Shown here piece by piece: positions 11,711 to 43,323 of a stretch of 64,000 nucleotides of DNA. How positions within the stretch are numbered: the first letter of the stretch is position 1; every line of letters begins with the position of its first letter. The stretch spans positions 62,001 through 126,000 of IMG/VR virus record IMGVR_UViG_3300044960_000113. One strand, written 5' to 3'. Below the pieces are notes generated by a model. The model was not told where the DNA came from, did not search any database, and was given only the letters and a program-made list of their open reading frames with translations. The translations under genes were made by a program, and so were the position numbers. This DNA comes from a virus.

Positions 11711-12742
11711 TTATATTTCTTTTAAAATTTCGTTAAGTGGTTTCATTTGAGATAGCAATTTAGGATTTGGTTTACCACCAATATATCCACCAGTATTTAT
11801 CCATGTATTAGTTTTGATAGGACCAGATTCTAAATAGTCTTTTTGTTTGATTGTTAGTAAATCGTTTCCATATTGTACGACTAATAATGCATTATCTCCC
11901 CATTTTTTGTTTGCACTTAATCGTTCACCACACCACACTAATAATTTTCCATTTACCTCTATAAATTTTTTACCTTTTATAATTGGATTAAATGGTTTAA
12001 TTATGTTAATTAAATCATCATTTGTAAAAGAGATAGTTTTTTCAACCTTAACTTTTTCAACCTTAACTTTTTCAACCTTAAGTTTTGGAAGTTTGGGCGG
12101 TTTTTCAAGAACTTCTGTAATTTCTACAGTATCTGTTATTTTTCTATTAAAGGTTTTTTCAACTACAGATTTATCACCTATTTCAGGAGTATCAGTCTTA
12201 GGCCATTCTCCAAGTTCTTTAACTGGTAATAATGGAAGATTTGATGTTGGTTGTTCAGCTCTACTAAAACTCATATCATACTCTAATGCTGAATAACAAA
12301 CATGGTTAATATGATGCAGTACTTGGTTTTTTTCTAGTCCTAGTTTATCGGCATATGGATTATAGTTGTTTAATGCTAAACCTTGTGGATGTGCTTCTGA
12401 AATTTTAAACCATTTCTCTATTTCTTCTTCACCACTCCAAAATTTTGGATTAGGCAGTCCATCTACTAGATAACCAAGTCGATGCTGAAGTACCCAATGA
12501 TTATCATCAATCAGTTCAATAGAGAATAACATATTATCAAGGATATGTTTCTCATCATGACCGGCTTGGAGTAATCTAGCTTTGATCTCAACAAGGAAAT
12601 TGCCATCACCTGCGGCAGGTTCTAGCCATGTTAGATTAGGATTGAACCAGATTTCAGGTGGAAGCTTGTCCAGCATCTCATGAATTAAAGATGCTGGAGT
12701 GAAGACTTCACCAGATTGTTTAATGCGAGATCTAGATTTCAA
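11711..12742 (-). CDS. Adenine-specific DNA methyltransferase-like protein
   Basis: 343 aa. The N-terminus carries the GEVFTP motif and SAM-binding motif LEPAAGDGNFL (~40-50) of gamma-type N6-adenine methyltransferases. I do not see the catalytic NPPY; the nearest is NNYNPYAD (~130), which may be a degraded form. A tandem KVEKVKVEKVKVEK linker (~225-240) leads to a separate C-terminal domain. It starts with TTG at 12742, overlapping the upstream stop TGA, so translation is coupled to the helicase-methyltransferase. The two products may work as one complex. Confidence 0.68.
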   Translation of the reverse strand: MKSRSRIKQSGEVFTPASLIHEMLDKLPPEIWFNPNLTWLEPAAGDGNFLVEIKARLLQAGHDEKHILDNMLFSIELIDDNHWVLQHRLGYLVDGLPNPKFWSGEEEIEKWFKISEAHPQGLALNNYNPYADKLGLEKNQVLHHINHVCYSALEYDMSFSRAEQPTSNLPLLPVKELGEWPKTDTPEIGDKSVVEKTFNRKITDTVEITEVLEKPPKLPKLKVEKVKVEKVKVEKTISFTNDDLINIIKPFNPIIKGKKFIEVNGKLLVWCGERLSANKKWGDNALLVVQYGNDLLTIKQKDYLESGPIKTNTWINTGGYIGGKPNPKLLSQMKPLNEILKEI

Positions 12743-15700
12743 TCTTTTATAGTACTTTCTATTAAATCAATTTCTTCTTGTGTTAAATTAAAATATTCAT
12801 ATAATTCTTGATCTGTCCATGATTTAGAAATATCAACATATGGAATATGATAACAGAAAAAATCTGTAGCAAAACCCCCTGATCTATTATTAACATTTAA
12901 AAATTTAATTAATTTAGAATTTAAATAATTTATTAAATTATTTCCCTCTTTTTCATTTTTAACTTCTATAGCATGAGAATGCCAACATGTTCCGCGTGTT
13001 CCTTCATCATAAATGGGATTAAATTCACCACAATTTGAAAATAATACTTTAGTTAAAGTTAAATCTTTAGGTTCTTTTTCAGCCCATGATAATTGTTGGG
13101 CATTAGTGTTAAATATTGGATATTTAAATTTGTCATTTTTTATTTTTGATGCATAATAAATTTTACTTTGAGAAATTTTAAAATATTTTTTATTTTCTAA
13201 TGTTTTATTTTGAATACTAAAATATTCATCTTTAATAATATTATTGTATATAGATGGAATATTTTTATTAATGTTAACATGTCTTTTAGTATTATTAATA
13301 ATAAATTCAGTATTTTTATAATTATTATTATTTTCTAACAACCACCAACATATATCAACGCCAACATTAAAAATATCTTTAGATAAAATATTAACTGATT
13401 TAAGATTTTTTGTTAAAAATAATTTTTTTGTTTTTTCACATTTTATCCATGTTGTTGGTGTTACTAAACATAAAGTTCCATCTTGTTTAAGATATGGAAG
13501 AAGTTTGTGAATAAATTTTTTCCATAAAGAATGTGTTTTATTTCCACCACTTTGATTGCCTTGATATGGAGGATTCCCAATAATAATATCAAATTTCATA
13601 TCTTTCAAATTGTCCCATTTAATAACATTAAACCCAAGTCTTTCGAGGTGGTCAATAAAAAAATTAAAATATTCTAAACATACAATTTCCGCATTAGGAA
13701 ATTCCCGTTTTAACACTATTGGTAATGCACCATTTAATGCATTTACTACACCAATGTTAATTTTACCTTTTGTATATTTATTCTTCGGAATTGCTTTAAC
13801 AATGTCTTCAGCTAAATCAAAACTCATATATACTAAACCTAATTTTTGTTTGTTTGTCGTGTTTTCAAAAATTTCTTCATATAAAATTTTTAATGATGAT
13901 AAACTTGGTTCTAATTTACCATCTTCAGGTTGTAATAGATAAGAATACGCTTCTTTTCGAACGTTTAAATATTCTGTCAGTATCGATTCAAATTTTTTAT
14001 TTTTCTTAATTTCTGTTATAACAACGTCCATAACCTCTTCTGAAAACATTTCTTTAATAGCGTTATTACTTAAAACTTTAATGACATCAAAATTATTAGT
14101 AGTAAATGATACCCATTGAGCTTCTTTCATAATCGCTTGAATAAGCTCTTCAATTTGTTCAATTCTATTAGTTTCTTGTTTATTATTTTTATTTTTTAAT
14201 AAATTGGCTAGATATATGTTTTTTACTTTCGATCCGTTTTTATTAGTTAAAGATATATTTTTAAACTTAGTTTTAAATTTAAAATTATTAATATCAATAT
14301 TTTTCCATGTATTTTTTAAATCGAATTTTGAAATGCATTCATATAGGTTATTAGATGATAATTTATTTTTTATTGAAGATTTATAATAATCTTGAACTGA
14401 AGATAATATTTCTTCAGTTGTATATGTTTTATTATTGCCATTAATATCATATTCCGTAAGTGGAATACAATCTAACATTCCGACTGTAGAACAAGATTTA
14501 TCTAATTCTGATGTTTTTTTGGACATCAGTCCCATAACAATCATAAGATCGTTGCCAGGCACCAATGAATAAAGTTTTACTTCATCTTTTCCTGGATATA
14601 GACGAATCAGTCTACCCAAAAGTTGTTCAAATCCACTAATGTCGGAAATTTTATCCATTAGCACGATATGTCCTAATGGAGGAATATCAGTTCCTACTAT
14701 AAATTTCCCGCATGTCAAGATAATAACTTGTTTATACTCTTTTAAAAGAGTTTCAACATATTCATTGATTGTTATGTTTCGTTTTTTAGCATTTTTTTCT
14801 ATTGCGTAACTATCAATAAAATGTACGCCTTTTACGTTTTCATTTAATAATTTAGCTAAAGCTGGTATATATTCACCAGCACTATCACCATTTTGACCTT
14901 GTGGTAAAACCCACATGCCACACTTTTTAGAAACTGTACTTAGTTGTGGATCATTGATAATGCTTAATGGGTTTTTCTTTTTACTCAAAGAACTTGTATA
15001 AAGTCTATTTGGAAGTTCTATTATTTCATATTGTAAAACAAAATTTAAGTTTTCTCTCGCAAATAATTTTCTAGGATCAAATCCTTCTTCTGAAGAATAA
15101 ATACTGGCGATTCTATCACTTATTGAACTAAATGGTGTATTAAATACTTCTATCCTAATTTTTGGGAGTTTAGTGTGTTCGCGATATTTTAAACCCCAAA
15201 GAAGAGATCTTGACACAATTTCATCATTATTATAATAATGATAAACTTTATATGGTGTGGCCGTTAAATCGAGTATTTTTTTTGGTTTTATTTCACTAAG
15301 TACCTTTTTAGTAAAAGGCGCTTCATATTGAGAATGCCTTTCATCTATAATCCATAGATCAATATTATTAACGAGAAATTTATATTTGCTTCGTAGTGTA
15401 ATTATTTCATTTTGAATTTCAGAATTTTCTGAATATCTAACATCTTGAACAGTTAAGACAATAAAAATTAATTCTCCTGCTAGTTTTCTTTTAATAAGCT
15501 CTTTTACATTATATTTTTTAAATTCTTTTGAGTCAATATATGTTATTTTGCGGTTTCGATTATAACCAAAGTGGTAATTTTCGATATTTTCTTCAAAACT
15601 TTTTTTAGTATCAGAAATAGGAGTAGTAACTAATACAAAACCACCTTCTTTGATGTGACGTGCTGCCACTTCTATAGCAATCATTGTTTTTCCTCTGCCA

Positions 15701-16260
15701 GTATACGCAGAAAATAAACAGCGATGTTTATTATTTAGGTACACATTAAGAATATCTGATATATCTTTTTCCTGCATCCATCGCCACTGTGGATTAATTT
15801 TAGTACAATAGTCTTTAGTTAAACCTAACATATGTTTAAAAATATTAATGAGATCGGGTAAATCTCTATCCTTATTAAATTTTAAAAGTGCTTCACCGTT
15901 AGTATTTTCTTCCTGATATTTCGTATAGTTTGCACTAAAAGAAATTAAACCTTTTTTATGTCTTTTATTAATTTCTTTTCGAAGATCATTATCATAATTT
16001 TTCTTTTTATCAGAAACATCAAAAACAATTATAGCATTAGCTACTAAATCTTCACTTAATGAAGATTTACTACCTTTATATCTCAACTCAAATGCTTTAC
16101 TGGGAGTAACTCCAGAATAAGATTCGGCAGTAAATTCGCCAAGTTTATTATTACTAGTAATATATATACAACCTTGCCCAGGAACAAGGCAACCATTATT
16201 TAATGGGGTTTTTGATAAATGAAATATTTCAGCTTTAGAACCATCAATTTTTACACTCAT
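12739..16260 (-). CDS. Large helicase-methyltransferase fusion protein
   Basis: 1173 aa. The first half is a superfamily 2 helicase: Walker A TGRGKT near residue 190, DERH box near 305, LTATP motif III, and a GRLIRLYPG motif VI. The second half has a methyltransferase-like domain with NPPYQG (near 900) but a weak SAM motif I (IGVVNALNGALP). The architecture recalls restriction-modification and phage anti-restriction proteins (type ISP, DarB-like), though much smaller than P1 DarB. No PD-(D/E)xK nuclease motif was found. GGAG precedes the ATG and an early promoter lies 34 bases upstream. Confidence 0.78.
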   Translation of the reverse strand: MSVKIDGSKAEIFHLSKTPLNNGCLVPGQGCIYITSNNKLGEFTAESYSGVTPSKAFELRYKGSKSSLSEDLVANAIIVFDVSDKKKNYDNDLRKEINKRHKKGLISFSANYTKYQEENTNGEALLKFNKDRDLPDLINIFKHMLGLTKDYCTKINPQWRWMQEKDISDILNVYLNNKHRCLFSAYTGRGKTMIAIEVAARHIKEGGFVLVTTPISDTKKSFEENIENYHFGYNRNRKITYIDSKEFKKYNVKELIKRKLAGELIFIVLTVQDVRYSENSEIQNEIITLRSKYKFLVNNIDLWIIDERHSQYEAPFTKKVLSEIKPKKILDLTATPYKVYHYYNNDEIVSRSLLWGLKYREHTKLPKIRIEVFNTPFSSISDRIASIYSSEEGFDPRKLFARENLNFVLQYEIIELPNRLYTSSLSKKKNPLSIINDPQLSTVSKKCGMWVLPQGQNGDSAGEYIPALAKLLNENVKGVHFIDSYAIEKNAKKRNITINEYVETLLKEYKQVIILTCGKFIVGTDIPPLGHIVLMDKISDISGFEQLLGRLIRLYPGKDEVKLYSLVPGNDLMIVMGLMSKKTSELDKSCSTVGMLDCIPLTEYDINGNNKTYTTEEILSSVQDYYKSSIKNKLSSNNLYECISKFDLKNTWKNIDINNFKFKTKFKNISLTNKNGSKVKNIYLANLLKNKNNKQETNRIEQIEELIQAIMKEAQWVSFTTNNFDVIKVLSNNAIKEMFSEEVMDVVITEIKKNKKFESILTEYLNVRKEAYSYLLQPEDGKLEPSLSSLKILYEEIFENTTNKQKLGLVYMSFDLAEDIVKAIPKNKYTKGKINIGVVNALNGALPIVLKREFPNAEIVCLEYFNFFIDHLERLGFNVIKWDNLKDMKFDIIIGNPPYQGNQSGGNKTHSLWKKFIHKLLPYLKQDGTLCLVTPTTWIKCEKTKKLFLTKNLKSVNILSKDIFNVGVDICWWLLENNNNYKNTEFIINNTKRHVNINKNIPSIYNNIIKDEYFSIQNKTLENKKYFKISQSKIYYASKIKNDKFKYPIFNTNAQQLSWAEKEPKDLTLTKVLFSNCGEFNPIYDEGTRGTCWHSHAIEVKNEKEGNNLINYLNSKLIKFLNVNNRSGGFATDFFCYHIPYVDISKSWTDQELYEYFNLTQEEIDLIESTIKD

Positions 16261-16390: not shown

Positions 16391-16435
16391 TTAATGAAAT
16401 CAATAACTTGTAACCCACTGAGATTTAACTCTATT
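16391..16435. repeat. 45-base direct repeat, copy 2
   Basis: Identical to 11622-11666. Here it covers the 3' end of the decayed HAD gene and its stop codon. TTATTGATTTATATA motifs lie just outside it at 16345-16390. Confidence 0.9.
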
Positions 16436-16981
16436 ATTTAATAGGTTCTCAAATGTTTTGTCGTTAATCTCATAATTAAACACTTTAAGAACTTGTAAAA
16501 AATTTCTATAATTAAATCCATCATAAGAGTCGACCTGTACAATTCTATCAATGTCTGCCTAGCTGAAGAAATTAGTGTTATTTAAACTATCATCAATTGC
16601 GACCCATTCAGTCATTTCTAGATGGTCATCTAACCACAATTTAATTTCATGATATCGTTGTGATGAAAAATTTACAGGTGTTGTTCAATCTTCATGGATG
16701 TTATATTTTCCGATATTTAATCCATTTAACTTAAAAAAATTAATCATCTCATCTATATTATAATGTTTCGCCTATGATGTCGACAATACGAATTTAGGTT
16801 TAATTTTTTCTATAATATAATTAAACATAGCCACAGCACAAGGGTCAAAAAATTTATAATGACCTTGATGCATTGGATCAGATTTACATCTTAAAGCTGA
16901 TCTATTCCCAGGTAAAAATTTAGCCCTACCTGAAATAAGTGGACCATCAATATCTAAAAAGATTATTTTAGTACTTTCCAT
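16400..16981 (-). pseudogene. Decayed HAD-domain gene with three in-frame stops at Trp positions
   Basis: Reading one frame from ATG 16981 to TGA 16400 gives 193 codons. It begins FLDIDGPL, a HAD phosphatase signature, and continues through VLSTS, TPVNF..R, and a WVAIDDS motif, fitting the HAD domain found with RNA-repair proteins. TAG at 16772-16774, TGA at 16685-16687 and TAG at 16559-16561 interrupt it. Each is one G-to-A change from TGG, and STSW is the expected family residue at the first. There are no frameshifts. The N-terminal 69-residue piece could still be made. Confidence 0.75.
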
Positions 16982-17303
16982 TTTTTAATATTTCTAATGC
17001 TTTAGAACATATTAAGTCATGTCCATATTTTTTATTATGAAAATAAGATAATGGTATTATTATGGATCTTTCAAATGATATAAATTTTCTAACAGATAGG
17101 TATAAAATTAATTTATTAAATTTTTTATCATATTTTTTACTTAAAGTGTAAATTTTACCATGATAATTTTTATTATCATCATATTTAATTTCATCAATAA
17201 CACCATATTTCATTCCAATCCATGAGCGTCTTCTAACAGGATATAATAAAATATGTCCTGGATGAATAAAATTTCCAAACATATCACGTGGCGTATTTGT
17301 CAT
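16968..17303 (-). CDS. Small unknown protein
   Basis: 111 aa, not recognised. Begins with HPGHILLYPVRRRSWIG, a beta-rich start suggestive of an SH3-like barrel. The last 14 bases overlap the start of the HAD pseudogene. Last intact gene of the long modification operon that runs down from 25.2 kb. Confidence 0.6.
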   Translation of the reverse strand: MTNTPRDMFGNFIHPGHILLYPVRRRSWIGMKYGVIDEIKYDDNKNYHGKIYTLSKKYDKKFNKLILYLSVRKFISFERSIIIPLSYFHNKKYGHDLICSKALEILKNGKY

Positions 17304-17304
17304 T

Positions 17305-17556
17305 TTATAATTCCTTCAATGAAATTATATTTGATATTTTAAATGAACGCCATTCTTTTTTGTCTAAATCGTATACTGATAAAATCTCTAAATTTTCTTT
17401 CTTTTTTCTTTTATTTTCTTCATTAGAGTTATTTTTTGGTAATAAATCTGGTTTAAGAGTACAACGCATTTTTCGAATATCACCATTAATTTTTTTAAAT
17501 TCTATTTCACATTCTTTTTCTAACAATGTTTGTTTGACTATACATCTAGTGTACAT
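17305..17556 (-). CDS. Small unknown basic protein
   Basis: 83 aa, not recognised. AAGGA lies 7 bases before the ATG and one base separates it from the next gene. Lys-rich centre (NEENKRKKKENLE). Confidence 0.55.
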   Translation of the reverse strand: MYTRCIVKQTLLEKECEIEFKKINGDIRKMRCTLKPDLLPKNNSNEENKRKKKENLEILSVYDLDKKEWRSFKISNIISLKEL

Positions 17557-17560
17557 AATT

Positions 17561-18169
17561 TTATCCTTTCATTTTAAAAATAGAATTTTTTATCATAGAC
17601 ATTGCCATATCTATATCTGTTCCAGGAACAATCAGATCATATTCATGTTCTTGGATCCATTTTATTTCTTCAGTAAATACAGATTTTAATCGATTAATTA
17701 TTTGACAAAAAACTTTATTTTTATCATCATTTTTATTTAATTCAGATATAAACCTTTCAATCAATCTGTTCATACGTATACTTTTTGGTGTATATACAAA
17801 AATTTTTAACATTTTTAATTCATTATTTTTACAATATTGTTTATATAAAGTAACTCCATTAGGTTCAACAATTATTGCACCAGGTTTATCATAACTAACT
17901 TTATTCAAAATCTCATCATTTGTTGTTCCATAATATGTTCCATTATAATTAACAACTTCAACAAAATTGTTATTATTCATTTGTGACTTAAATTGTTCTG
18001 TTGTTAAAAAGTAATAGTCTTTGCCTTCAATTTCACCAACTCTAGGTTGTCTAGTTGTATATGAAATTATTTTATTGACAACACCAAATTTTACTAATGA
18101 ATCTAGTAAATATGATTTACCAGCAGCTGACTCACCAGTTATTGTTATAAAAATCAAATTATTTTTCAT
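17561..18169 (-). CDS. gmk: Guanylate-kinase-like nucleotide kinase
   Basis: 202 aa. P-loop GESAAGKS at about 11-18, then TTRQPRVGEIEGKDYYF (38-54), the guanylate-kinase GMP-binding signature. It transfers phosphate from ATP to an NMP. In a genome with modified bases, it may act on a normal dGMP pool or a modified nucleotide. Overlaps the nucleotidyltransferase gene by 11 bases. Length matches bacterial Gmk. Confidence 0.85.
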   Translation of the reverse strand: MKNNLIFITITGESAAGKSYLLDSLVKFGVVNKIISYTTRQPRVGEIEGKDYYFLTTEQFKSQMNNNNFVEVVNYNGTYYGTTNDEILNKVSYDKPGAIIVEPNGVTLYKQYCKNNELKMLKIFVYTPKSIRMNRLIERFISELNKNDDKNKVFCQIINRLKSVFTEEIKWIQEHEYDLIVPGTDIDMAMSMIKNSIFKMKG

Positions 18170-18941
18170 TTATTATTTCCTCAATAATTTTAATTTCTTC
18201 TTGTGTGTTATAACTTAATTGTGGATAATCTGTTACTATTGCACGTGCTGGAAAACCTATATTATAAAAATAATGAATAATATATAAAAATGTCATCTCT
18301 CCAGAATCTGTTATATATCGTCCATTTTTATAATATGCTGCATTTAATACATCTAATGAATTTTCTAAACATGTTTTACAACATAGAAATATACATTGGT
18401 CATGAAAACCACTCAAATGTTTTTCACCACGTTTAGAAAAATCAACACTTATACAATTCATATCATTATCAGTTAAAAATGTTACATATGGATTATCTTC
18501 TTTAACAACTGGCACTAACATAGGTTTAATATCATAAAGTTTATCAAATGAAATACATTCTTCAAAAATATAATTATTTGAAATATATGCATCACCCCAC
18601 AATATAAAAAATTTTTCAGTTAATTCTTCTTTTAAATTTTTAATTTCTTTTATTGCTTCCATCACTGCATGTCCATCACCTTTTCCAGAATCAATAGCAA
18701 TTACACGTATTTCACTATTATATTTTGGATTACAACCAATATAATTTCCAACAAATAAATCGAATTTATCAACGTTTTTCTTATTTGAAACAACATAAAT
18801 ACGTCTAAAAATACCATTAATTTTATTTAATGTATTTTCTAAATTTGGAGTTCCATTTATATTAATAAGTGCTTTAGGTATGGAAATATTACCCATTCTG
18901 GTTCCATTGCCTGCAGCAATTATAAGTAAATCATAATCCAT
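18159..18941 (-). CDS. Sugar-nucleotide (NTP) transferase
   Basis: 260 aa. The N-terminus has the nucleotidyltransferase signature AAGNGTRMG ... PKAL (9-26) of GlmU/RmlA/GalU-like enzymes, and WGDAYIS near 125 gives the metal-binding Asp. It would join a sugar phosphate to a nucleotide to give an NDP-sugar. Between the kinase and CofD/HAD genes and near a BGT-like glycosyltransferase, it plausibly supplies the donor for DNA glycosylation; the sugar is unknown. Confidence 0.8.
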   Translation of the reverse strand: MDYDLLIIAAGNGTRMGNISIPKALININGTPNLENTLNKINGIFRRIYVVSNKKNVDKFDLFVGNYIGCNPKYNSEIRVIAIDSGKGDGHAVMEAIKEIKNLKEELTEKFFILWGDAYISNNYIFEECISFDKLYDIKPMLVPVVKEDNPYVTFLTDNDMNCISVDFSKRGEKHLSGFHDQCIFLCCKTCLENSLDVLNAAYYKNGRYITDSGEMTFLYIIHYFYNIGFPARAIVTDYPQLSYNTQEEIKIIEEIINEK

Positions 18942-18942
18942 A

Positions 18943-20826
18943 TTAATTATTTTTATCTAATGTTAATAATAAAGTTTTTAGAAAAATTAGTGTTTCTCGT
19001 GGATTTTTTACTTGTAAAAAATCAACATTTTTACTATGTGCTATAGCATAATCATTTCCGCCAGACATACCTTCATCACCCACATAAACAATTTTTGTAT
19101 TATCATCCATATCTTTAATAATATCATTTAATGCTTTTAATTTAGCATCACTACCTTTAGAAATATCTATAGTTGTTCTACCTGTTGGTCTTACATAATA
19201 ATTTGAACCAAGTTTCATCTGAAGTAATATAGAAAGTGGCTTTCTATATTCATTTTCTATAGGTTTAATTGATATTGTTGCATTATTTCTATTTTGAATT
19301 TTATTAATTTCAAATCCTAATTCTTCTAATATTGTCAAAATATCATTAATTTCTTTTTCTGAAAATGTTGATGGTGTGTGTACACAATTAATATATTTTT
19401 TATTAACTTCATCATATTTTATTGGGATATACTCTAGTAAATATTTGTTTATTCCACCATCAGCATATAATGTAATATTGTTAAATAACACACTATAATT
19501 TTGACTTAATACTTTATTAAAAAATTGTGATGATATAATAGATTTATCAATTGTGTTTGAAGATATTTTTTTAAAAGTTAAATTTATAGATTTTTCAGAA
19601 TTTCCCGTTATAATGTTTATATTTTTATTAAATTTTGTCAATGTCCATAATAATAATTTATTTGTTTGTGATTCTATATAATATTCATTATTCCGTCCTA
19701 CTAATGTATCATCGTAATCAAATGCATATGTATGTGAATTTAAATATTTTTTATAATATGAATGCATAATTGCCCATGCTAAACTTTCTGGGTGATGTTT
19801 TTTATCGTTTTTATTTTCAGATAATGTATATACAGAATAATTAATAGATGATTTATCATCTTTTGATATATTATTGACTGACATTTCATCTGATGCATTT
19901 TTATTGAAAATAAAATGGACATTTTTAATATTAATATATTCTGAAATGATTTTTATCATTTCATATGAATTAACACCACTCATATCTTTATCTTGTATAT
20001 TATTAATAATGCAAAATATTTTATTTGATTTGAATGCATTTGATGATTCAAATGTTTTTTCAAAATCTACACTAATATATGTTGGAATTAATGAAGACCA
20101 TTGTGTTCCAGACGATAGAACAATAATGTCAGCATTCTGAATTGCATTTTTTGCACGTTGAGTTAAATGAGGTAATCTTATAATACCACCAGTATCAACA
20201 AGTCTAATATGATCTATTTTATCTTTTGGATTGTTCCAATTTACTATATCACCTTCATCTAATATGATATGACCGGATTTTGTAATTGCTTGAAGAAATA
20301 AACTTTCATCAGAACTTGGAATTACAGCATCTTCTTCAATTTTCAATAATTTTGCCATTTCTATTCCAGCTGCTTCCATAGAATAATTGTGTTTGGCAGC
20401 CAATCCAGCATAAATTATATTAGATATTGAAAAATCTGAATATGTTATTTGACGTGATTTTGGATATAAAAAATATGTTTTAATTGCGTCAAAAGCAACA
20501 TCTTTGAATTCATCATTATTTTCTAATTTATTTAATTCATGAATACAGTATTGTTCTGCATCTTCAGCTGAACAATCAAATCTAATATCCATGAATTTAT
20601 AGAGTTGCGTTTCACCATATAATAATTTATGACGTAATGTTTGATTTTTACGTAAATCAGATGGGCCTAAAATTTTACCATCCATAACTTGTCTAACTGC
20701 ACCTGTTGATTTACCATTATCATATAAGTTTGTAATTACATTAATTTCTAAATTATTAAATAAATTATTTAAACCTGTTTGAAGTGCTATAGAACCTGTT
20801 CCACCAGAAAAAATAACTAATTTCAT
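18943..20826 (-). CDS. CofD/YvcK-like domain fused to a HAD phosphatase
   Basis: 627 aa. Residues 1-~340 carry the CofD/YvcK signature: FSGGTGS at 6-12, NLYDNGKSTG (33-42) and GPSDLRKNQ (54-62). CofD transfers 2-phospholactate groups, and YvcK binds UDP-sugars. Residues ~360-627 form a HAD type II phosphatase or sugar-phosphate mutase-like domain (DYDDTL, TGNS, GDEGMSGGND). I know of no cellular protein with this fusion. Spaced one base from the NTP transferase and 15 from the BGT-like gene, it probably works in the same sugar pathway. Confidence 0.78.
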   Translation of the reverse strand: MKLVIFSGGTGSIALQTGLNNLFNNLEINVITNLYDNGKSTGAVRQVMDGKILGPSDLRKNQTLRHKLLYGETQLYKFMDIRFDCSAEDAEQYCIHELNKLENNDEFKDVAFDAIKTYFLYPKSRQITYSDFSISNIIYAGLAAKHNYSMEAAGIEMAKLLKIEEDAVIPSSDESLFLQAITKSGHIILDEGDIVNWNNPKDKIDHIRLVDTGGIIRLPHLTQRAKNAIQNADIIVLSSGTQWSSLIPTYISVDFEKTFESSNAFKSNKIFCIINNIQDKDMSGVNSYEMIKIISEYINIKNVHFIFNKNASDEMSVNNISKDDKSSINYSVYTLSENKNDKKHHPESLAWAIMHSYYKKYLNSHTYAFDYDDTLVGRNNEYYIESQTNKLLLWTLTKFNKNINIITGNSEKSINLTFKKISSNTIDKSIISSQFFNKVLSQNYSVLFNNITLYADGGINKYLLEYIPIKYDEVNKKYINCVHTPSTFSEKEINDILTILEELGFEINKIQNRNNATISIKPIENEYRKPLSILLQMKLGSNYYVRPTGRTTIDISKGSDAKLKALNDIIKDMDDNTKIVYVGDEGMSGGNDYAIAHSKNVDFLQVKNPRETLIFLKTLLLTLDKNN

Positions 20827-20841
20827 ATAATTAATTCCTTT

Positions 20842-21975
20842 TTATATATTTTTAATTAATAAATTGATAAAATCAGTACAATATTTTTTAGCATCAAAAT
20901 TAATTGCTTTAAATTGCGCATCAATAATATCTTTCCTTGCACTATTATCATTTATAAGAAGTCTTAATTTATTTTCAGCATCTTCTCTAGAGCTCACATA
21001 TAAAAAATCTATTAAATCTTTATCGTTTTTATAAAATCTTTTTTCTTTATCTAGATCTGAATCGATAAATGTTATACATTGTGCAACTACTGATTCAGAT
21101 GCTCTTTGTGCCATATCAGATATTTCTTCATACCATGGATCTCCTATAACAATATGAGACATAGCACTATTCATCTTTTCTAACATTTTATCATATTTGA
21201 CGACACCTGTAAAATTTGGTGTTCTTAAATTACTTATCAAATTAGGATTAAAATCTTTAAGTTCTATTTTTCCAAACATTTCTACAATAATATCTTCAGG
21301 CCATCCAAAATAATATTTTATCATTTTTTTAATTCTTTTACCACCTCTCATTGTTCCACCATATGAAAGATGAACTGTTGGTGCTTCATTAAATGGTTTT
21401 GGTGTATTTAAAAATGGAAATAATTCAAATGGATAATGTTTTATTCCGCGAATATTAGAAACTTCATATTTACCAAATGAATTTTTAACCTTTTCTGTAT
21501 TAAATGGTTGACAAATATAAAAAATATCATCACGCGTTATTTCTATATCTTTTTTATTATATTTTTTACCCCATTCTTTTTTTTCTACAGAATGCCAAAT
21601 TTGTTTTAATGTTAATTCTGGATCACATAAAATATAAAATATTGGACCTTTAAAATTGTTTATTATATGATAATTTGCTATTTGATATTCATCTTCAGTA
21701 CCACCAAAAAAATTAACATTCCCGTTTAATATACACAATGCATCTAATGATAAATTATTAATTTTATCTTTAAATTCTAAAGTATCAACAATTAAAACGT
21801 TTTCAATCGGTTTTTCTGGCTCATTTTTAATGCGTTTAGATAATGCAATAACTTGAGCACCGCCATTGATCATCATTTTTATTAATGATATAGTTTCTCC
21901 AGTACCACCACTTGTTCCTTGATTATCAAAAGAAATACGTGCACCTAATTTAATTACACCTAATTTTATTGACAT
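20842..21975 (-). CDS. T4 beta-glucosyltransferase-like DNA glycosyltransferase
   Basis: 377 aa, against 351 for T4 BGT. Collinear matches to T4 BGT as I recall it: SGGTGETISLI (Glu27 for T4 Glu22), LNGNVNFFGG (compare NSSINFFGG), the YILCDPEL segment with Asp118 for catalytic Asp100, YGGTMRGG (compare YGGSFRSG), FTGVVKYDKM and IVIGDPWY. T4 BGT glucosylates 5-hydroxymethylcytosine in duplex DNA. A dCMP hydroxymethylase lies in the same operon, so the pathway is consistent. The sugar may differ from glucose. Confidence 0.8.
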   Translation of the reverse strand: MSIKLGVIKLGARISFDNQGTSGGTGETISLIKMMINGGAQVIALSKRIKNEPEKPIENVLIVDTLEFKDKINNLSLDALCILNGNVNFFGGTEDEYQIANYHIINNFKGPIFYILCDPELTLKQIWHSVEKKEWGKKYNKKDIEITRDDIFYICQPFNTEKVKNSFGKYEVSNIRGIKHYPFELFPFLNTPKPFNEAPTVHLSYGGTMRGGKRIKKMIKYYFGWPEDIIVEMFGKIELKDFNPNLISNLRTPNFTGVVKYDKMLEKMNSAMSHIVIGDPWYEEISDMAQRASESVVAQCITFIDSDLDKEKRFYKNDKDLIDFLYVSSREDAENKLRLLINDNSARKDIIDAQFKAINFDAKKYCTDFINLLIKNI

Positions 21976-22493
21976 AATGCCTCTTTCAAAATATCTTTTG
22001 GATCTTTATAATATCCATTATTGTTAATATCAATAATTTTTTTATTTTTAATTTTTGATCTGTTAAATGCAAATTTAAATAACTCTTGTTCTTCTGTTTT
22101 TCTTTTAAAATTAAAACTTTTACCATCATCTTTTAGAAATGAAAAATCTGATGTTGTTAAAAGAATAAGTTTTATATTATCTATTTTATAAATAGAATAA
22201 TCTTGTTCCATATCAAATACATAATTTCCAGAATATCCACGATATAATGGTGAATAGACACATTCACCTAAATGAAATCTATTAAAAATAATTGGAATAT
22301 TATGTTTTTCTGATAACAATTTAAATCCATATTCAAATGATGTTTTTTGATATTTAAATAAATCATTATCATAAATAGCAATTTTTTGTGGTTTCGTATA
22401 ATGTATTACAAAATGAAAACCCAAATGTTGAATTATTTGATTTATTAATGTATCTTTTCCTAATCTGTCTATTCCTTCTATTATGAATTTCAT
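21966..22493 (-). CDS. Thymidylate-kinase-like deoxynucleotide kinase
   Basis: 175 aa. P-loop GIDRLGKDT at 7-15, then NRFHLGE (~92-98), like the DRY/NRF motif of dTMP kinases and phage dNMP kinases. It probably phosphorylates a dNMP. Between the hydroxymethylase and glycosyltransferase genes, hydroxymethyl-dCMP is an attractive substrate, the job T4 gp1 does. Overlaps the BGT-like gene by 10 bases. Confidence 0.75.
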   Translation of the reverse strand: MKFIIEGIDRLGKDTLINQIIQHLGFHFVIHYTKPQKIAIYDNDLFKYQKTSFEYGFKLLSEKHNIPIIFNRFHLGECVYSPLYRGYSGNYVFDMEQDYSIYKIDNIKLILLTTSDFSFLKDDGKSFNFKRKTEEQELFKFAFNRSKIKNKKIIDINNNGYYKDPKDILKEALCQ

Positions 22494-22503
22494 ATTTTTA
22501 AAA

Positions 22504-22797
22504 TTATTCCCATATTATTATATTATTTGAATTTGCCAATTCAGCTAAAATTTCACCATGACATAATTTAGGTGAACACCAACAACCAAGCTTTTTATTT
22601 TTTAATTCTGATATTTGACTTAATAATTCTTTATTTGATAATATCCAATTTTTATATTTAGCCACAACTTCTTCACGAGTTCCATCTTTTCCTATTTCAA
22701 ATGGGTTACCCCATTTAGATGGTCTACCAACATAAACATCATATTCTGATTTTTTACAATGAACAACATATTTTTTATATGGTCTTTTATTCATCAT
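22504..22797 (-). CDS. DUF4326-like protein
   Basis: 97 aa. Matches a small family remembered as DUF4326 by YVGRPSKWGNPF near the start and LGCWCSPKLCHGEIL near the end. Conserved Cys and His suggest metal binding or a thiol enzyme. Function unknown; common in phages. It overlaps the helicase gene by 11 bases. Confidence 0.75.
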   Translation of the reverse strand: MMNKRPYKKYVVHCKKSEYDVYVGRPSKWGNPFEIGKDGTREEVVAKYKNWILSNKELLSQISELKNKKLGCWCSPKLCHGEILAELANSNNIIIWE

Positions 22798-24511
22798 TAT
22801 TTAAGAAACTTTTTTGCATTGTTAAAAATTCTTTTTGCCAGATATTGTTTTTAGAACGCCATAATCTAGATATATTACTATCTATCATATACGTAATTGC
22901 ATAATCTTCTTTAGATCTTACACTTCTACCAGAACCTTGAACTAATCTTTTTATTGTCATTAATTCATATATTTCTGGATAATTTTCCATAATATATTTA
23001 ATTCGTTTATCTCCTAATGATGCAAATGGTGCCTTAACAAATATTTGAAATCTAGAATGATCATCTGGTAAATCTATTCCTTCAAACATAGATGGAGATA
23101 ATAATATTGATGGACTATCATAATTTTTAAACATTTCTAAAATTTTTTCTAATTTTTCTCCTCTAATATGTTCAAATACTTTAACATTATTTTTTCTTAA
23201 AAATTTAGATAATCTTTCAGATACAACAAAACTTGGGCACAATACTATCCCTTTATCAGAACTATGAAATTTAACTATTTCTAAAACAGTTTTGTCTATT
23301 TTTGATAAAACTGTTTCATCTTTCATTGAATTATAATTTAATGATTGTGGTTTGTAAAAAACAATTTTTTTATTTTCTTTTGGAAATGTTGGTTCAACAT
23401 GTATAAATTTGGTTTTATTTTTATTTAAATTTAATGTTTTTATTAAAAAATGATCTGATATTGTTGCAGACATAAAAATATTAAAATCTGAAAATCTCAA
23501 TGTTTTTTCAAACATATCACCAACAAAAATTGGTTTAATAGAAAATTCATTTTCACCATTTTCTTTAATTAATTGTGGGACATGTTCATAACCATATTTT
23601 AATAAATCATCAATCTTACAACCTAATCCAAAATATTTTTTATGTAATCTTGAAAATTGTGTATATTTGTTAATATTTTTTATATTCATTTCCATCTCAG
23701 ATTTACACTGTTCTGCAATTAATTTATATGCATTATATAATGGTAACATATATGCCATATATGTTTTTTCATTTAAAAGGCCATCTTTTAAATCTGTTGT
23801 TATACGTTTAATTGTGTTATAAACATCTGTTTTACCAAGTTTAAGATGATTAGTAATTTCTTCGGTTATTTTATTAAAATGTTTTTCAGAAATATAAATC
23901 GCATTATGTTCTGTAAATATATCATTGATTGTATGAGCCTCATCCCACACAGTTACACATCTTTTAGATAAAACATCTGCATACATTCTATCAACAAAAT
24001 AATAACTATAATTTGTGATTAAATGTTTAACAGTATTTCGTTTATTTTTTACATCTAAATATTCACATTTATAGCATTTTTGTACAGCATTTGCCATTAC
24101 GTCATCTATAGTATTATTTTGCAGTACTCCAAACATACATTCTTCTGCTGTATAAAAATCATCAGAATTTTTTGATACAGAATTTAATGCGTCACATGGA
24201 TATTGACTTGCACCTTTCAGTTGTGCAAAATTATGATTTCCAGAAAATGTTTTATAATATTGTTTAGCTAAAGCATTATTATGTACTAGAATTATAGATG
24301 ATAAATCACTTTTTTGAATTTTTCCGATACATTCAGCAGTAACAGCACCAATTAATGATTTACCTGTTCCAGTTGGTGCACATAAAATAATATCGTTATA
24401 TCTTTCATCAAGAATGGATATTAAGATATTATTAATAGTTTCAACTTGATTATCTCGTGGAAAAAAATTTAATGATGCATATGCATCATTGATTAATTGT
24501 TCATATTTCAT
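22787..24511 (-). CDS. XPD/DinG-like Fe-S superfamily 2 helicase
   Basis: 574 aa. Walker A CAPTGTGKS (~44), DEAH box VWDEAH (~190) and a QGSGRSVRS motif VI (~520). Four cysteines between motifs I and II (near 104, 124, 140, 143) match the Fe-S cluster domain of XPD/DinG helicases. These unwind DNA 5' to 3' in repair or replication. Overlaps the hydroxymethylase stop by 4 bases, so it is co-expressed with the modification genes. Confidence 0.85.
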   Translation of the reverse strand: MKYEQLINDAYASLNFFPRDNQVETINNILISILDERYNDIILCAPTGTGKSLIGAVTAECIGKIQKSDLSSIILVHNNALAKQYYKTFSGNHNFAQLKGASQYPCDALNSVSKNSDDFYTAEECMFGVLQNNTIDDVMANAVQKCYKCEYLDVKNKRNTVKHLITNYSYYFVDRMYADVLSKRCVTVWDEAHTINDIFTEHNAIYISEKHFNKITEEITNHLKLGKTDVYNTIKRITTDLKDGLLNEKTYMAYMLPLYNAYKLIAEQCKSEMEMNIKNINKYTQFSRLHKKYFGLGCKIDDLLKYGYEHVPQLIKENGENEFSIKPIFVGDMFEKTLRFSDFNIFMSATISDHFLIKTLNLNKNKTKFIHVEPTFPKENKKIVFYKPQSLNYNSMKDETVLSKIDKTVLEIVKFHSSDKGIVLCPSFVVSERLSKFLRKNNVKVFEHIRGEKLEKILEMFKNYDSPSILLSPSMFEGIDLPDDHSRFQIFVKAPFASLGDKRIKYIMENYPEIYELMTIKRLVQGSGRSVRSKEDYAITYMIDSNISRLWRSKNNIWQKEFLTMQKSFLNNDE

Positions 24512-25173
24512 TTTATTAAATTAAAATGTCTTTCGTAAACGTGAAGTGATCCAACTGTCCAATATATATTACCCATTTTTACCAATAATTTAGAATTATT
24601 TAAATCATTTACCAATTTTTCTAAAACATATTTTTGCCATCCATAATCATTTTTATATCCAAATACGACATCTTGTGATCTCATTCTAACATGTGCATGA
24701 AGTTTATTGTCTCTAATGAAATATTGGACAGCATCAGTACACATAAAATCTGACATACCATTATAATTATAATCTATCCACATTGATGGACGAGTGTAAA
24801 TCATCTCAGCTCGTCTCGTTGATTCACCATTTTTAATGAGTTCATTTTTTACATTTTCATATTGATTATAGTTTTCTTTAGAAAAAATACACCAACCATA
24901 ATTTGAGTTTATTTTTCCTTCTTTTGAAGCAACCTGTTGCCAAACTTGTGGAGGACCACCTGGAATATCTTTAATATATAGAGATTGAGATTCGTACCAG
25001 CTTATTTCTCTTTTTAGATAATCTTCGTTAACTGTTCCAAAAATAGCTGGTTCATCTGCTATAAAACTTTCTGCTAATAATTCTACTGTTTTTACACCAG
25101 TTTTGTCTATTACAAAATCTTTATTTTTTAATTTTTCAATAAATTTTTTTCTTATATCATATACTTTTTGCAT
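24508..25173 (-). CDS. 42: Deoxycytidylate 5-hydroxymethylase (T4 gp42-like)
   Basis: 221 aa. Converts dCMP to 5-hydroxymethyl-dCMP with methylenetetrahydrofolate. Strikingly collinear with T4 gp42: KDFVIDKTGVKT, INSNYGW, YTRPSM, catalytic Cys145 in SDFMCT (T4 Cys148), RSQDVVFG, and Asp176 in KNDYGWQ (T4 Asp179), the residue that favours dCMP over the dUMP of thymidylate synthase. T4 gp42 is about 25 residues longer. Its presence is the strongest sign that this phage carries modified cytosine. Confidence 0.95.
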   Translation of the reverse strand: MQKVYDIRKKFIEKLKNKDFVIDKTGVKTVELLAESFIADEPAIFGTVNEDYLKREISWYESQSLYIKDIPGGPPQVWQQVASKEGKINSNYGWCIFSKENYNQYENVKNELIKNGESTRRAEMIYTRPSMWIDYNYNGMSDFMCTDAVQYFIRDNKLHAHVRMRSQDVVFGYKNDYGWQKYVLEKLVNDLNNSKLLVKMGNIYWTVGSLHVYERHFNLIK

Positions 25174-25187
25174 TAAAAATATCCTTA

Positions 25188-25646
25188 TTACAAAGTATTT
25201 ACATTAATTAAATCCACTGTTAAATTTATATCTTTATTAATGAATGTTAAATTAGGAACAACATCATCAACTAAAACACAAGTTGTATTTTTAAAATTAA
25301 ATTGGCAAAAATCTAAAAATAAACGATGTTTACCCCACACACACACACATGATAATTCTTGAAGTTCCCATTTGCAACCAGTAAATTTAACAATATCTTT
25401 TAAAATTTCTTCTTGTGTTGGAATATTACCAATATTTACATCAAGTGCACGCTGTATTGGGTCTTTAAGACTAGATATAAATTCTTGTCTGTCTTTTTCA
25501 TTCCAGATAGCAAATGAAAAAATAGATATATTTTCAACAAAATTATTTTTTAATAATTTCTTGATCTTAGAAACATTGCACAATCTTTGATCATGCCAAC
25601 TATTAATAATAGTTTCTTCAAGATCTAAAAACCAATGAGAGTCCAT
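25188..25646 (-). CDS. HAD-like small protein
   Basis: 152 aa. Begins WFLDLEETIINSW, a variant of the HAD DxDxT motif, and ends with LVDDVVPN, like the late HAD acidic motif. The nucleophile position is Asp but the second acid is Glu, so activity is uncertain. First gene of the modification operon, with an early promoter upstream. Confidence 0.5.
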   Translation of the reverse strand: MDSHWFLDLEETIINSWHDQRLCNVSKIKKLLKNNFVENISIFSFAIWNEKDRQEFISSLKDPIQRALDVNIGNIPTQEEILKDIVKFTGCKWELQELSCVCVWGKHRLFLDFCQFNFKNTTCVLVDDVVPNLTFINKDINLTVDLINVNTL

Positions 25647-25677
25647 AATGAGACCATTTTTTATTTTAAGATAATAT

Positions 25678-25706
25678 ATTATCTCATATTTTATAAAAAA
25701 AGTAAA
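25678..25706 (-). promoter_or_regulatory. Early-type promoter for the DNA-modification operon
   Basis: Minus strand: -35 TTTACT, 17-base spacer, -10 GATAAT. It lies between the HAD-like gene and the end of the nucleotidyltransferase-fold gene, so it would drive the whole run down to 16.4 kb. Confidence 0.6.
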
Positions 25707-25709
25707 TAC

Positions 25710-26642
25710 TTATTTTTTATGAAAAGATGAAATTTCAGGTGGTAATTTTATATTTGTTCCTTTGAATGAATCTGCTACATCTTTAAATATTTTATCTTGA
25801 ATATTTTTAGGAAATGTTTTTTTGATTAATTCTATAACTTTTTCAGCAGATGTTACATCTTTTTCCGTATAACCTTTACCAAATAAATGTTCTACTGCTT
25901 TATTTGGATCATTTATTAAATCTAATTTATCACTAAATTTAATATCTTTATATTTAGGATCAATTTTAATTAATTCTTGTTTTAATTCATTTGGTGTTAC
26001 TTCTATCATATTTTTTAATCTAGCTGTTCCTTTTTTATTCATTGGAGCTATTTTAAATACTCGTCTAATTCCACCGGTTGGATTCCATGCTCTGCTTGCT
26101 CTAGCTATAACATTTCCATTATCATCAGTTACAACTAAATCTTCATCTTTAATTTGTTTATATCGAGATGCTGCCATTAATAATTGACCACGGATTGCTC
26201 CTTTATATTTTGATTCTTTTCCTTCATCACTATAAAAATGGAATCTTGCCCAATCTACATCCGGAACAAACATTAAATCAACTTGAACTTTTTTATTATT
26301 TGATACAGGGACAGCATATGAACCAACTCTTATTCCAGGTTGTAATTGACCTTCATTATTAAATGCTTTCATCATTTTTTTATGAACTTCTTGCATAAAT
26401 TCTGGTGATTTCATATCTATAGCAATATCTATATCACCTGAATCTTTTTTATAACCTAATAAAGTTAATTCTGTTGTTCCTAAAACTTGTTTTTTTAGAT
26501 TATCTAAATCTATTTTTAATATATCTGAAACCTTTTTAAGTGCAATTTCAATATCTGATTTTGAAGCACGAGAAGTACCCCATTTTTTAGTAACTTTACC
26601 ATTTTCAAATAATATTTTTGATAAAAAAGATTTAAAGTTCAT
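25710..26642 (-). CDS. Polymerase-beta-like nucleotidyltransferase-fold protein
   Basis: 310 aa. The GS-like motif is loose (LGTTELTLLG), followed by GDIDIAID (~73-80) and VQVDLMFV (~125), the three-acid layout of minimal nucleotidyltransferases. The N-terminus MNFKSFLSKILFE resembles leader segments of several T4-like structural or secreted proteins. Related genes occur in phages; the transferred group is unknown. It lies head to head with the first fibre gene. Confidence 0.6.
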   Translation of the reverse strand: MNFKSFLSKILFENGKVTKKWGTSRASKSDIEIALKKVSDILKIDLDNLKKQVLGTTELTLLGYKKDSGDIDIAIDMKSPEFMQEVHKKMMKAFNNEGQLQPGIRVGSYAVPVSNNKKVQVDLMFVPDVDWARFHFYSDEGKESKYKGAIRGQLLMAASRYKQIKDEDLVVTDDNGNVIARASRAWNPTGGIRRVFKIAPMNKKGTARLKNMIEVTPNELKQELIKIDPKYKDIKFSDKLDLINDPNKAVEHLFGKGYTEKDVTSAEKVIELIKKTFPKNIQDKIFKDVADSFKGTNIKLPPEISSFHKK

Positions 26643-33034: not shown

Positions 33035-33441
33035 TTGATTAAATATTGTTTATTTGTATAAACTGAAAATTCTTCAGTTATTGCCCATTTTTTAGTTTTT
33101 ATTATATCAAATAATATTGTTGGATCTTTTTTCTTTGTTATAAAAAGTGTTATTAATTTATTAGTTTTACCAATATTTTTTATTTCTATAAGATCTAATG
33201 TATTTATTCTAATTATATGTGCATCTTTTTTATTTGACAATATTAACCTATTATTATCATCAATTATTATTTTCCATTCATTAATAGACGTTTCACCTAA
33301 AAGTATACTTTTAGCTATAGGGTCAAAAGGTATTTCGAAACTTTTAATGTTTTCACGGTTTAAATCACATATTTTATTGGGCCCAATCTGTAATATTTCA
33401 AATGTTATTTCATCATAATGACAATAAAATTTTTTATCCAC
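33031..33441 (-). CDS. Unknown protein downstream of SpoVR
   Basis: 136 aa, not recognised. GTG start at 33441 overlaps the end of the SpoVR gene by 8 bases, implying translational coupling and a possible link to the kinase triad. Confidence 0.55.
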   Translation of the reverse strand: MDKKFYCHYDEITFEILQIGPNKICDLNRENIKSFEIPFDPIAKSILLGETSINEWKIIIDDNNRLILSNKKDAHIIRINTLDLIEIKNIGKTNKLITLFITKKKDPTILFDIIKTKKWAITEEFSVYTNKQYLIN

Positions 33442-34906: not shown

Positions 34907-34941
34907 TTTTATAAAATTGTATGTAATTTAATTATATATAT

Positions 34942-36249: not shown

Positions 36250-36256
36250 TTATTTC

Positions 36257-43303: not shown

Positions 43304-43323
43304 TATTTATATTTATATTTATA
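43304..43323 (-). promoter_or_regulatory. Cluster of overlapping TATAAATA late-promoter boxes
   Basis: On the minus strand the octamer occurs three times, at 43304, 43310 and 43316, giving 32-44 bases to the start at 43271. Confidence 0.6.

What the first reader, a model, noticed from the sequence alone, without database searches (positions are those of the whole stretch)
16400..25706. Operon for hydroxymethylated and glycosylated cytosine DNA with extra sugar enzymes
One promoter drives genes for a gp42-like dCMP hydroxymethylase, a dNMP kinase, a guanylate kinase, a BGT-like glycosyltransferase with both catalytic acids kept, an NTP sugar transferase, and a CofD/YvcK-HAD fusion. T4 takes UDP-glucose from its host. 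This phage seems to bring its own sugar-activating steps, which hints at a sugar other than glucose or at independence from host pools.
Basis: partly seen in the sequence, partly recalled or inferred. Interest (0 to 1): 0.8.

Follow-up and report, generated by a model that had tools for sequence, protein, structure and literature searches.

The report
Phage cassette for extra-decorated glucosyl-hydroxymethylcytosine DNA
This large phage carries the T4-type genes that put hydroxymethyl and then glucose on its cytosines, plus a conserved two-gene set (a CofD/GlmR-like protein fused to a sugar-phosphate HAD enzyme, and a sugar nucleotidyltransferase) that always travels with a glycosyltransferase and probably makes or attaches a special sugar for its DNA.

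Summary
The genes are real and lie where stated. The window is part of a 184-kb virus record. It encodes a gp42-type dCMP hydroxymethylase with the diagnostic Asp, a T4-type beta-glucosyltransferase (BGT) that keeps every catalytic and UDP-glucose contact residue checked (one Ser is Thr), two nucleotide kinases, a CofD/GlmR-HAD fusion and a GlmU-like nucleotidyltransferase (NTPtr). The claimed single promoter is not distinguishable from chance.

The new result is that CofD-HAD plus NTPtr is a module. All 15 viral loci fetched with BGT alone carry it, on the same strand as BGT. It also sits beside an unrelated DNA glycosyltransferase family (TAGT) in two phages, and beside (once fused to) GT2 glycosyltransferases in gut Clostridia MAGs. 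It has no PHROG hit, and in 50,697 phage records it occurs only in huge phage LR756500.

Most likely it makes a dedicated nucleotide-sugar donor for the neighbouring glycosyltransferase (about 0.45). The main rival is that the CofD domain attaches a sugar-phosphate to the glucose already on DNA (about 0.3). The donor identity and the chemistry of the CofD step are unknown. This is a new variant of a known kind.

The parts
24508..25173 (-). dCMP 5-hydroxymethylase, T4 gp42-like (221 aa); active-site Cys in SDFMCT and Asp in KNDYGW
   Evidence: T4 gp42 structures E 8e-87; phrog_160 1e-48; Asp at the TS Asn position, while the phage's separate thymidylate synthase (L007:17250-18158) keeps Asn
22787..24511 (-). 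DinG-like helicase (574 aa), syntenic in 9 phages with the cassette; role in modification not evident
   Evidence: PF13307 5e-20; synteny
22504..22797 (-). DUF4326 protein (97 aa), role unknown
   Evidence: PF14216 4e-29
21966..22493 (-). dNMP kinase-like P-loop protein (175 aa), candidate hm-dCMP kinase
   Evidence: PF02223 0.0012 (below cut-off), phrog_761 1e-8; conserved in 13 of the de-duplicated loci
20842..21975 (-). DNA beta-glucosyltransferase, T4 BGT family (377 aa)
   Evidence: PF09198 3.5e-17, phrog_7922 3.5e-42; T4 residues E22, D100, E163, R191, R195, D258, Y261, R269, E272 conserved as E27, D118, E184, R210, R214, D279, Y282, R291, E294
18943..20826 (-). CofD/GlmR-like domain (about 1-360) fused to PMM/alpha-PGM-like HAD domain (about 366-627)
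   Evidence: PF01933 5e-21; model pLDDT 90.6, pTM 0.89; Foldseek: GlmR/YvcK 2o2z TMt 0.83, CofD 3c3d 0.67, alpha-PGM 4bnd 0.61-0.64; D36, D57, N275 and HAD D370, D372, T374, K562 invariant in 25 sequences
18159..18941 (-). GlmU/IspD-like nucleotidyltransferase (260 aa)
   Evidence: PF12804 8e-10; model pLDDT 95.1, GlmU TM 0.80, HddC, RmlA, UGP; R15, K23, D117, N245 invariant in 26 sequences
17561..18169 (-). guanylate kinase-like protein (202 aa)
   Evidence: PF00625 3e-24, phrog_1815 1e-33; present in 10 de-duplicated cassette phages
17305..17556 (-). WYL_2 small protein (83 aa), probably bystander
   Evidence: PF10902 3e-15
25710..26642 (-). 310-aa protein upstream on the same strand, syntenic next to the hydroxymethylase gene in several cassette phages; function unknown
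   Evidence: cluster c8 in 6 loci; no Pfam hit

Best explanation
This is a cytosine hypermodification cassette. Step 1: the gp42-like enzyme makes hydroxymethyl-dCMP. Step 2: the kinases raise it to the triphosphate, which is built into DNA. Step 3: the BGT adds a hexose to hydroxymethylcytosine in DNA. Step 4, the new part: CofD-HAD and NTPtr form a separable module that makes a dedicated nucleotide-sugar donor for the neighbouring glycosyltransferase. The HAD domain turns a hexose-6-phosphate into a hexose-1-phosphate (or trims a phosphate), the NTPtr couples it to an NTP, and the CofD/GlmR domain performs a further nucleotidyl- or phospho-transfer on that intermediate. Steps 1 and 3 rest on conserved active sites; step 2 and all of step 4 are inferred. 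My probabilities: steps 1-3 about 0.9; the module acting in this DNA-sugar pathway about 0.85; donor synthesis rather than decoration about 0.45.
For: Active-site conservation of hydroxymethylase and BGT. All 15 loci fetched with BGT alone carry CofD-HAD and NTPtr. Over 15 phages the protein distances of BGT, CofD-HAD and NTPtr correlate at r 0.89-0.95, with at most 1 of 2000 permutations as high. Relatives by fold: alpha-PGM/PMM, GlmU/RmlA/UGP, GlmR; GlmR makes UDP-GlcNAc from UTP and GlcNAc-1-P (PMC10128056). The pair follows unrelated glycosyltransferases: BGT; TAGT in L026 (two, flanking) and L027; membrane-type GT2 in Clostridia MAGs. A membrane GT2 extrudes its product while making it (general knowledge), so a soluble module is better placed to make its donor than to decorate its product. 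Fusions tie the steps: CofD-HAD; HAD-NTPtr in L043; GT2-CofD-HAD in one 1007-aa frame in L018. Precedents: RB69 and Thanatos (PMC6024577, PMC12838424).
Against: Two potential nucleotidyltransferases (NTPtr and a GlmR-like domain) are one too many for simple donor supply. The BGT donor contacts are those of T4, so plain UDP-glucose, which hosts normally have, would suffice. The HAD domain is below the PMM family cut-off and lacks one of the PMM cap arginines, so a mutase role is unproven. L028 has CofD-HAD but no NTPtr on its 22.6-kb contig. No substrate was tested.
Confidence: 0.45

Rival explanations
1. Second-layer decoration. BGT adds glucose from host UDP-glucose as in T4. HAD and NTPtr make an NDP-sugar (or NDP-acid, as CofC makes a guanosine-diphospho-lactate), and the CofD domain transfers the sugar-phosphate to a hydroxyl of the glucose on hydroxymethylcytosine, releasing NMP and leaving a phosphodiester-linked second sugar.
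For: CofD/FbiA chemistry is exactly this: a hydroxyl attacks the beta-phosphate and GMP leaves (PMC7253369), and CofC/CofD is a nucleotidyltransferase plus transferase pair. The BGT pocket is T4-like, so the module's product need not be the BGT donor. No second DNA glycosyltransferase is seen in the operon. Some cassettes insert a SAM methyltransferase between BGT and CofD-HAD (L034, L044, L046), a decoration theme. The guanylate kinase could recycle GMP. Phage SP-15 DNA carries a phosphodiester-linked glucuronolactone (PMC5977210).
Against: The CofD domain is closer to GlmR than to CofD/FbiA by sequence and fold. In Clostridia the partner is a membrane GT2 whose product would be out of reach. 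FbiA metal-ligand equivalence was not checked on coordinates.
Confidence: 0.3
2. Independence from host pools: the module simply makes UDP-glucose for BGT during infection, so DNA carries ordinary beta-glucosyl-hmC.
For: Alpha-PGM and UGP-like relatives; BGT contacts as in T4.
Against: 117 of 118 annotated phage records with a BGT match have no detectable CofD-HAD or NTPtr, so T4-type BGT phages do without it. Bacterial genomes keep the same pair with no BGT detected. The residue where GlmU has its sugar-binding Asn is His-Asp-Gln here (alignment, compared), which suggests a different substrate.
Confidence: 0.12
3. The CofD/GlmR domain is a nucleotide-sugar sensor or regulator rather than an enzyme, tuning sugar supply for modification.
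For: B. subtilis GlmR binds UDP-GlcNAc and has regulatory interactions (PMC7525490, abstract).
Against: Counterparts of two residues of the GlmR triple mutant (D40, N198) are invariant here, and fusion to HAD and to a glycosyltransferase suggests catalysis.
Confidence: 0.1

Closest known systems
T4 gp42 / beta-gt pathway (glucosyl-hydroxymethylcytosine)
   Same: dCMP hydroxymethylase with the diagnostic Asp; BGT with the same catalytic and UDP-glucose contact residues; monophosphate kinase; T4-like replication genes (UvsX-, UvsW- and DnaB-type helicase genes)
   Different: Extra CofD-HAD and NTPtr module; no match to PF08761, which I take from memory to be the dCTPase gp56 family, in this 184-kb record
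RB69 / Thanatos pentosylated cytosine clusters (RB69 ORF53_52c, TH1_060, TH1_063)
   Same: Phage-encoded sugar activation beside a hydroxymethylase for DNA glycosylation; TH1_063 shown to be a UDP-xylose pyrophosphorylase (PMC12838424, PMC6024577)
   Different: No CofD/GlmR domain or BGT of this branch is described there; tblastn with the window's CofD-HAD and NTPtr finds only LR756500 in the phage collection
CofC/CofD (FbiD/FbiA) of coenzyme F420 synthesis
   Same: A nucleotidyltransferase plus a CofD-superfamily protein working as a pair; possible phospho-group transfer to a hydroxyl
   Different: CofD domain nearer to GlmR (TMt 0.83 against 0.67); HAD domain fused; linked to glycosyltransferases, no F420 genes seen nearby
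GlmR/YvcK accessory uridyltransferase
   Same: Best fold match; D40 and N198 equivalents conserved
   Different: Second Asp (D41) is N37 here; extra HAD domain; far below the NCBIfam subfamily cut-off (74.7 against 196)
Bacillus phage SP-15 DNA (glucose plus phosphodiester-linked glucuronolactone on DHPU)
   Same: Precedent for a phosphodiester-linked sugar on a phage DNA base, with teichoic-acid-like genes (PMC5977210)
   Different: Modified uracil rather than cytosine; no CofD or BGT described in the passages read

Membership tests
T4-type hmC plus BGT system | dCMP hydroxymethylase: catalytic Cys, and Asp in place of the TS Asn | tested here: met
   SDFMCT and KNDYGW; the phage's own TS has FNIAS
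T4-type hmC plus BGT system | BGT catalytic base D100, E22 and UDP-glucose contact residues | tested here: met
   all conserved in the window (S189 is Thr)
T4-type hmC plus BGT system | dCTPase (gp56, PF08761) to remove dCTP | tested here: inconclusive
   no match in the 184-kb record, which may be incomplete; the control rang only below cut-off
T4-type hmC plus BGT system | Modified cytosine in virion DNA | not testable with these tools
   Uncultured phage; needs LC-MS
CofD family (PF01933) | Pfam score above cut-off | tested here: met
   75.6 against 30 bits
CofD/FbiA enzymes | Metal-binding Asp pair (FbiA D45, D57) | tested here: inconclusive
   D36 and D57 invariant in 25 sequences, but equivalence not verified on coordinates
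GlmR/YvcK accessory uridyltransferase | Subfamily score (TIGR01826) above cut-off | tested here: not met
   74.7 against 196 bits
GlmR/YvcK accessory uridyltransferase | D40, D41 and N198 (mutated together lose activity) | tested here: inconclusive
   D40 equivalent D36 and N198 equivalent N275 invariant; D41 is N37, with Asp or Ala in some relatives
PMM / alpha-PGM HAD phosphomutases | Family score (PF03332) above cut-off | tested here: not met
   16.8 against 22.4 bits for the window; 6 of 25 members match at E up to 0.1
PMM / alpha-PGM HAD phosphomutases | HAD catalytic motifs and fold | tested here: met
   D370, D372, T374 and K562 invariant, GDE..GND near-invariant; PMM/PGM are the top matches by profile and among the best HAD matches by fold
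Sugar-1-phosphate nucleotidyltransferases (GlmU, RmlA, HddC, UGP) | Fold and catalytic Arg, Lys and metal-binding Asp | tested here: met
   Model pLDDT 95; GlmU TM 0.80; R15, K23, D117 invariant
Sugar-1-phosphate nucleotidyltransferases (GlmU, RmlA, HddC, UGP) | A specific equivalog (substrate known) | tested here: not met
   No NCBIfam equivalog near its cut-off

The most novel reading that the evidence does not exclude
The CofD domain is a DNA-acting sugar-phosphate transferase: it adds a hexose-1-phosphate (or another phospho-linked group made by HAD and NTPtr) to the glucose on hydroxymethylcytosine, giving phosphodiester-branched, negatively charged DNA bases. The same module does analogous work beside TAGT-type DNA glycosyltransferases.
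Probability: 0.28. Interest if true: 0.85.

Novelty: new variant of a known kind. Interest (0 to 1): 0.62.

Why it matters
Phages are expected to carry DNA sugars beyond those known, but gene markers for them are few. A conserved module that follows DNA glycosyltransferases of two unrelated families (BGT and TAGT), and surface-sugar glycosyltransferases in bacteria, gives such a marker and names three proteins to assay. It would bear on evasion of restriction and CRISPR and on type IV enzymes that read glucosylated DNA. It could also assign a chemistry to a CofD/GlmR branch with no known function.

Tried and rejected
(1) Single-sequence search of viral contigs with CofD-HAD found nothing; profile searches were needed. 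(2) Alternative code for the phage (TAG/TGA as Trp), suggested by the broken HAD_SAK gene: rejected, because TGA and TAG end 35 of 114 long frames. (3) Promoter claim: not above shuffles. (4) Clue from the Acaryochloris plasmid CofD relative (41% identity over the CofD part): its neighbours are not informative. (5) Literature: no library paper joins CofD with glucosyltransferase and hydroxymethylcytosine; MetaGPA and the jumbo-phage survey do not mention CofD. (6) PF12851 (TET/JBP) in the TAGT phages: no match, but the control did not ring either, so nothing follows. (7) Viral structure library: only HAD-domain matches, no CofD domain. (8) I first favoured the CofC/CofD-type decoration reading; the GT2 neighbours in Clostridia and the closeness to GlmR moved me to donor synthesis as slightly more likely.

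Full report
Observation. The window is positions 62001-126000 of a 184,280-base virus record. The finding's region holds a compact minus-strand gene run. From its 5' end: a 152-aa unknown (25646-25188), a gp42-like hydroxymethylase, a DinG-like helicase, DUF4326, a dNMP-kinase-like protein, BGT, CofD-HAD, an NTP transferase, a guanylate kinase, WYL_2, and an unknown. Most neighbouring frames overlap or lie within about 20 bases. The promoter claim cannot be upheld. A same-strand gene at 26642-25710 lies 63 bases upstream and is syntenic in relatives (cluster c8), so the run may start there. The phage has T4-like replication genes: UvsX/RecA-like, UvsW, a DnaB-type helicase and a ribonucleotide reductase with an intein splicing domain. 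It also has its own thymidylate synthase (L007:17250-18158), a dUTPase and a dCMP deaminase.

Hydroxymethylcytosine. A profile of three cassette hydroxymethylases finds T4 dCMP hydroxymethylase at E 8e-87, far ahead of thymidylate synthases. The position that is Asn in thymidylate synthase and Asp in gp42 is Asp in the window and in all cassette relatives examined. The phage's separate thymidylate synthase keeps Asn. The assignment is therefore to dCMP hydroxymethylation.

Glucosylation. The BGT matches Pfam T4-Gluco-transf at 3.5e-17 and PHROG beta-glucosyltransferase at 3.5e-42. T4 residues E22, D100, E163, G188, R191, R195, F213, G214, D258, Y261, R269 and E272 are all kept; only S189 is Thr among the positions I regard as contacts (the list of contacts is from my knowledge of the T4 structures). 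The donor is thus most likely UDP-glucose or a close relative.

The extra genes form a module. CofD-HAD and NTPtr were sought by profile in IMG/VR and in GTDB genomes. The BGT profile alone returned 15 loci, and every one also carries CofD-HAD and NTPtr. BGT and CofD-HAD are 0 to 1.5 kb apart, or 5.9 kb in LR756500, on the same strand. After removing duplicates there are 18 BGT phages with CofD-HAD, 17 of them with NTPtr on the contig; L028 is the exception. The BGT profile comes from module-bearing sequences, so it favours that branch. In the annotated phage collection 118 records have a BGT match but only LR756500 has CofD-HAD or NTPtr. In a tree the module-bearing BGTs lie apart from those of T4, CC31 and Enterococcus VFW. 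Protein distances of BGT, CofD-HAD and NTPtr correlate at r 0.89-0.95 over 15 phages, so they have been inherited together.

The module is not tied to BGT. In L026 it is flanked by two TAGT glycosyltransferases and in L027 it follows one (PF20691). TAGT is a DNA-glycosyltransferase family unrelated to BGT (established knowledge), and no BGT was detected on these contigs. In gut bacterial MAG loci the pair sits beside GT2 glycosyltransferases (Pfam-checked in L013, L014, L015, L018 and L021; the rest by clustering), and in L012 it lies within a larger surface-sugar cluster (GT2, GT8, CTP_transf_3). L017 lies beside housekeeping-looking genes (a truA-like and an rpsI-like frame by eye), so it is probably chromosomal. 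In L018 GT2, CofD and HAD are one 1007-aa frame, and in L043 the HAD moves from CofD to the NTPtr. The three domains and the glycosyltransferase therefore behave as one pathway. In L034, L044 and L046 a SAM methyltransferase stands between BGT and CofD-HAD.

What the parts look like. The NTPtr model (pLDDT 95) matches GlmU (TM 0.80), HddC, RmlA, UDP-glucose pyrophosphorylase and LicC. Catalytic R15, K23 and D117 are invariant in 26 sequences. No known specificity class fits. The CofD-HAD model (pLDDT 90.6) shows a CofD-superfamily domain nearest GlmR/YvcK (TMt 0.83) and further from CofD (0.67) and FbiA (about 0.65). Its HAD domain is nearest an alpha-phosphoglucomutase and phosphomannomutases. 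GlmR makes UDP-GlcNAc from UTP and GlcNAc-1-phosphate, and loses activity when D40, D41 and N198 are mutated together (PMC10128056). D40 and N198 have invariant counterparts here (D36, N275), while D41 is N37. FbiA transfers a phospho-group to a hydroxyl with release of GMP (PMC7253369). The HAD catalytic residues are invariant.

Mechanism. Two readings fit. In the first, HAD and NTPtr, with some help from the CofD domain, make a special nucleotide sugar for whichever glycosyltransferase is next door. This explains the unrelated glycosyltransferases, and especially the membrane GT2 cases, where a soluble enzyme could hardly decorate an extruded product. In the second, the CofD domain is itself the second transferase and adds a sugar-phosphate to the glucose on DNA. 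This gives every protein one step, accords with the T4-like BGT pocket and the methyltransferase neighbours, and has a product precedent in phage SP-15 DNA (PMC5977210). I put these at about 0.45 and 0.3. Plain UDP-glucose supply (0.12) and a sensor role (0.1) are less likely. Nothing here shows a substrate.

Known or new. Phage-encoded sugar activation for DNA is known in RB69 and Thanatos (PMC6024577, PMC12838424). The CofD/GlmR-HAD plus NTPtr module has no PHROG hit, no CofD-domain match in the viral structure library, and no mention in the papers I could search. I rate it a new variant of a known kind. The limits are that the phages are uncultured, many contigs are fragments, the dNMP kinase call is weak, and the FbiA metal-site equivalence was not checked on coordinates.

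Noticed in passing
window 16399-16981 (-): HAD_SAK_2-like gene broken by three in-frame stops (TAG, TGA, TAG). The middle one falls on a Trp conserved in three intact phage homologues. The phage uses TGA and TAG as ordinary stops, so this looks like a decayed gene or an assembly error.
   Followed up: partly
window 12739-16260 (-): 1173-aa protein joining a ResIII-type helicase to an Eco57I-type adenine methyltransferase, directly downstream of the cassette; a single-chain restriction-modification-like protein in a phage.
   Followed up: no
window 33434-38221 (-): SpoVR, DUF444 and PrkA kinase genes side by side with very strong Pfam scores, a bacterial stress triad in a phage.
   Followed up: no
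window 43319-45460 (-): Full-length PAS-PAS-GGDEF-EAL c-di-GMP protein (713 aa) in a phage genome.
   Followed up: no
L006 13750-19999 and L007 1-8224 (same genome, outside the window): Long tandem array of paralogues, about 180-300 aa each, most starting MKLQELFLKEEQ.
   Followed up: no
L018 385-3408; L043 3924-6288: Domain fusions: GT2-CofD-HAD in one frame; CofD alone followed by a HAD-NTPtr fusion.
   Followed up: yes
L052 7598-8560: Enterococcus phage VFW has a 'nucleotide sugar synthetase-like protein' near its b-gt, with no Pfam match; possibly another phage-borne sugar step beside a BGT.
   Followed up: partly
L010 10412-10837 (same genome): A second sugar-nucleotidyltransferase-like frame, only 141 aa long (PF00483 2e-22), probably truncated.
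   Followed up: no
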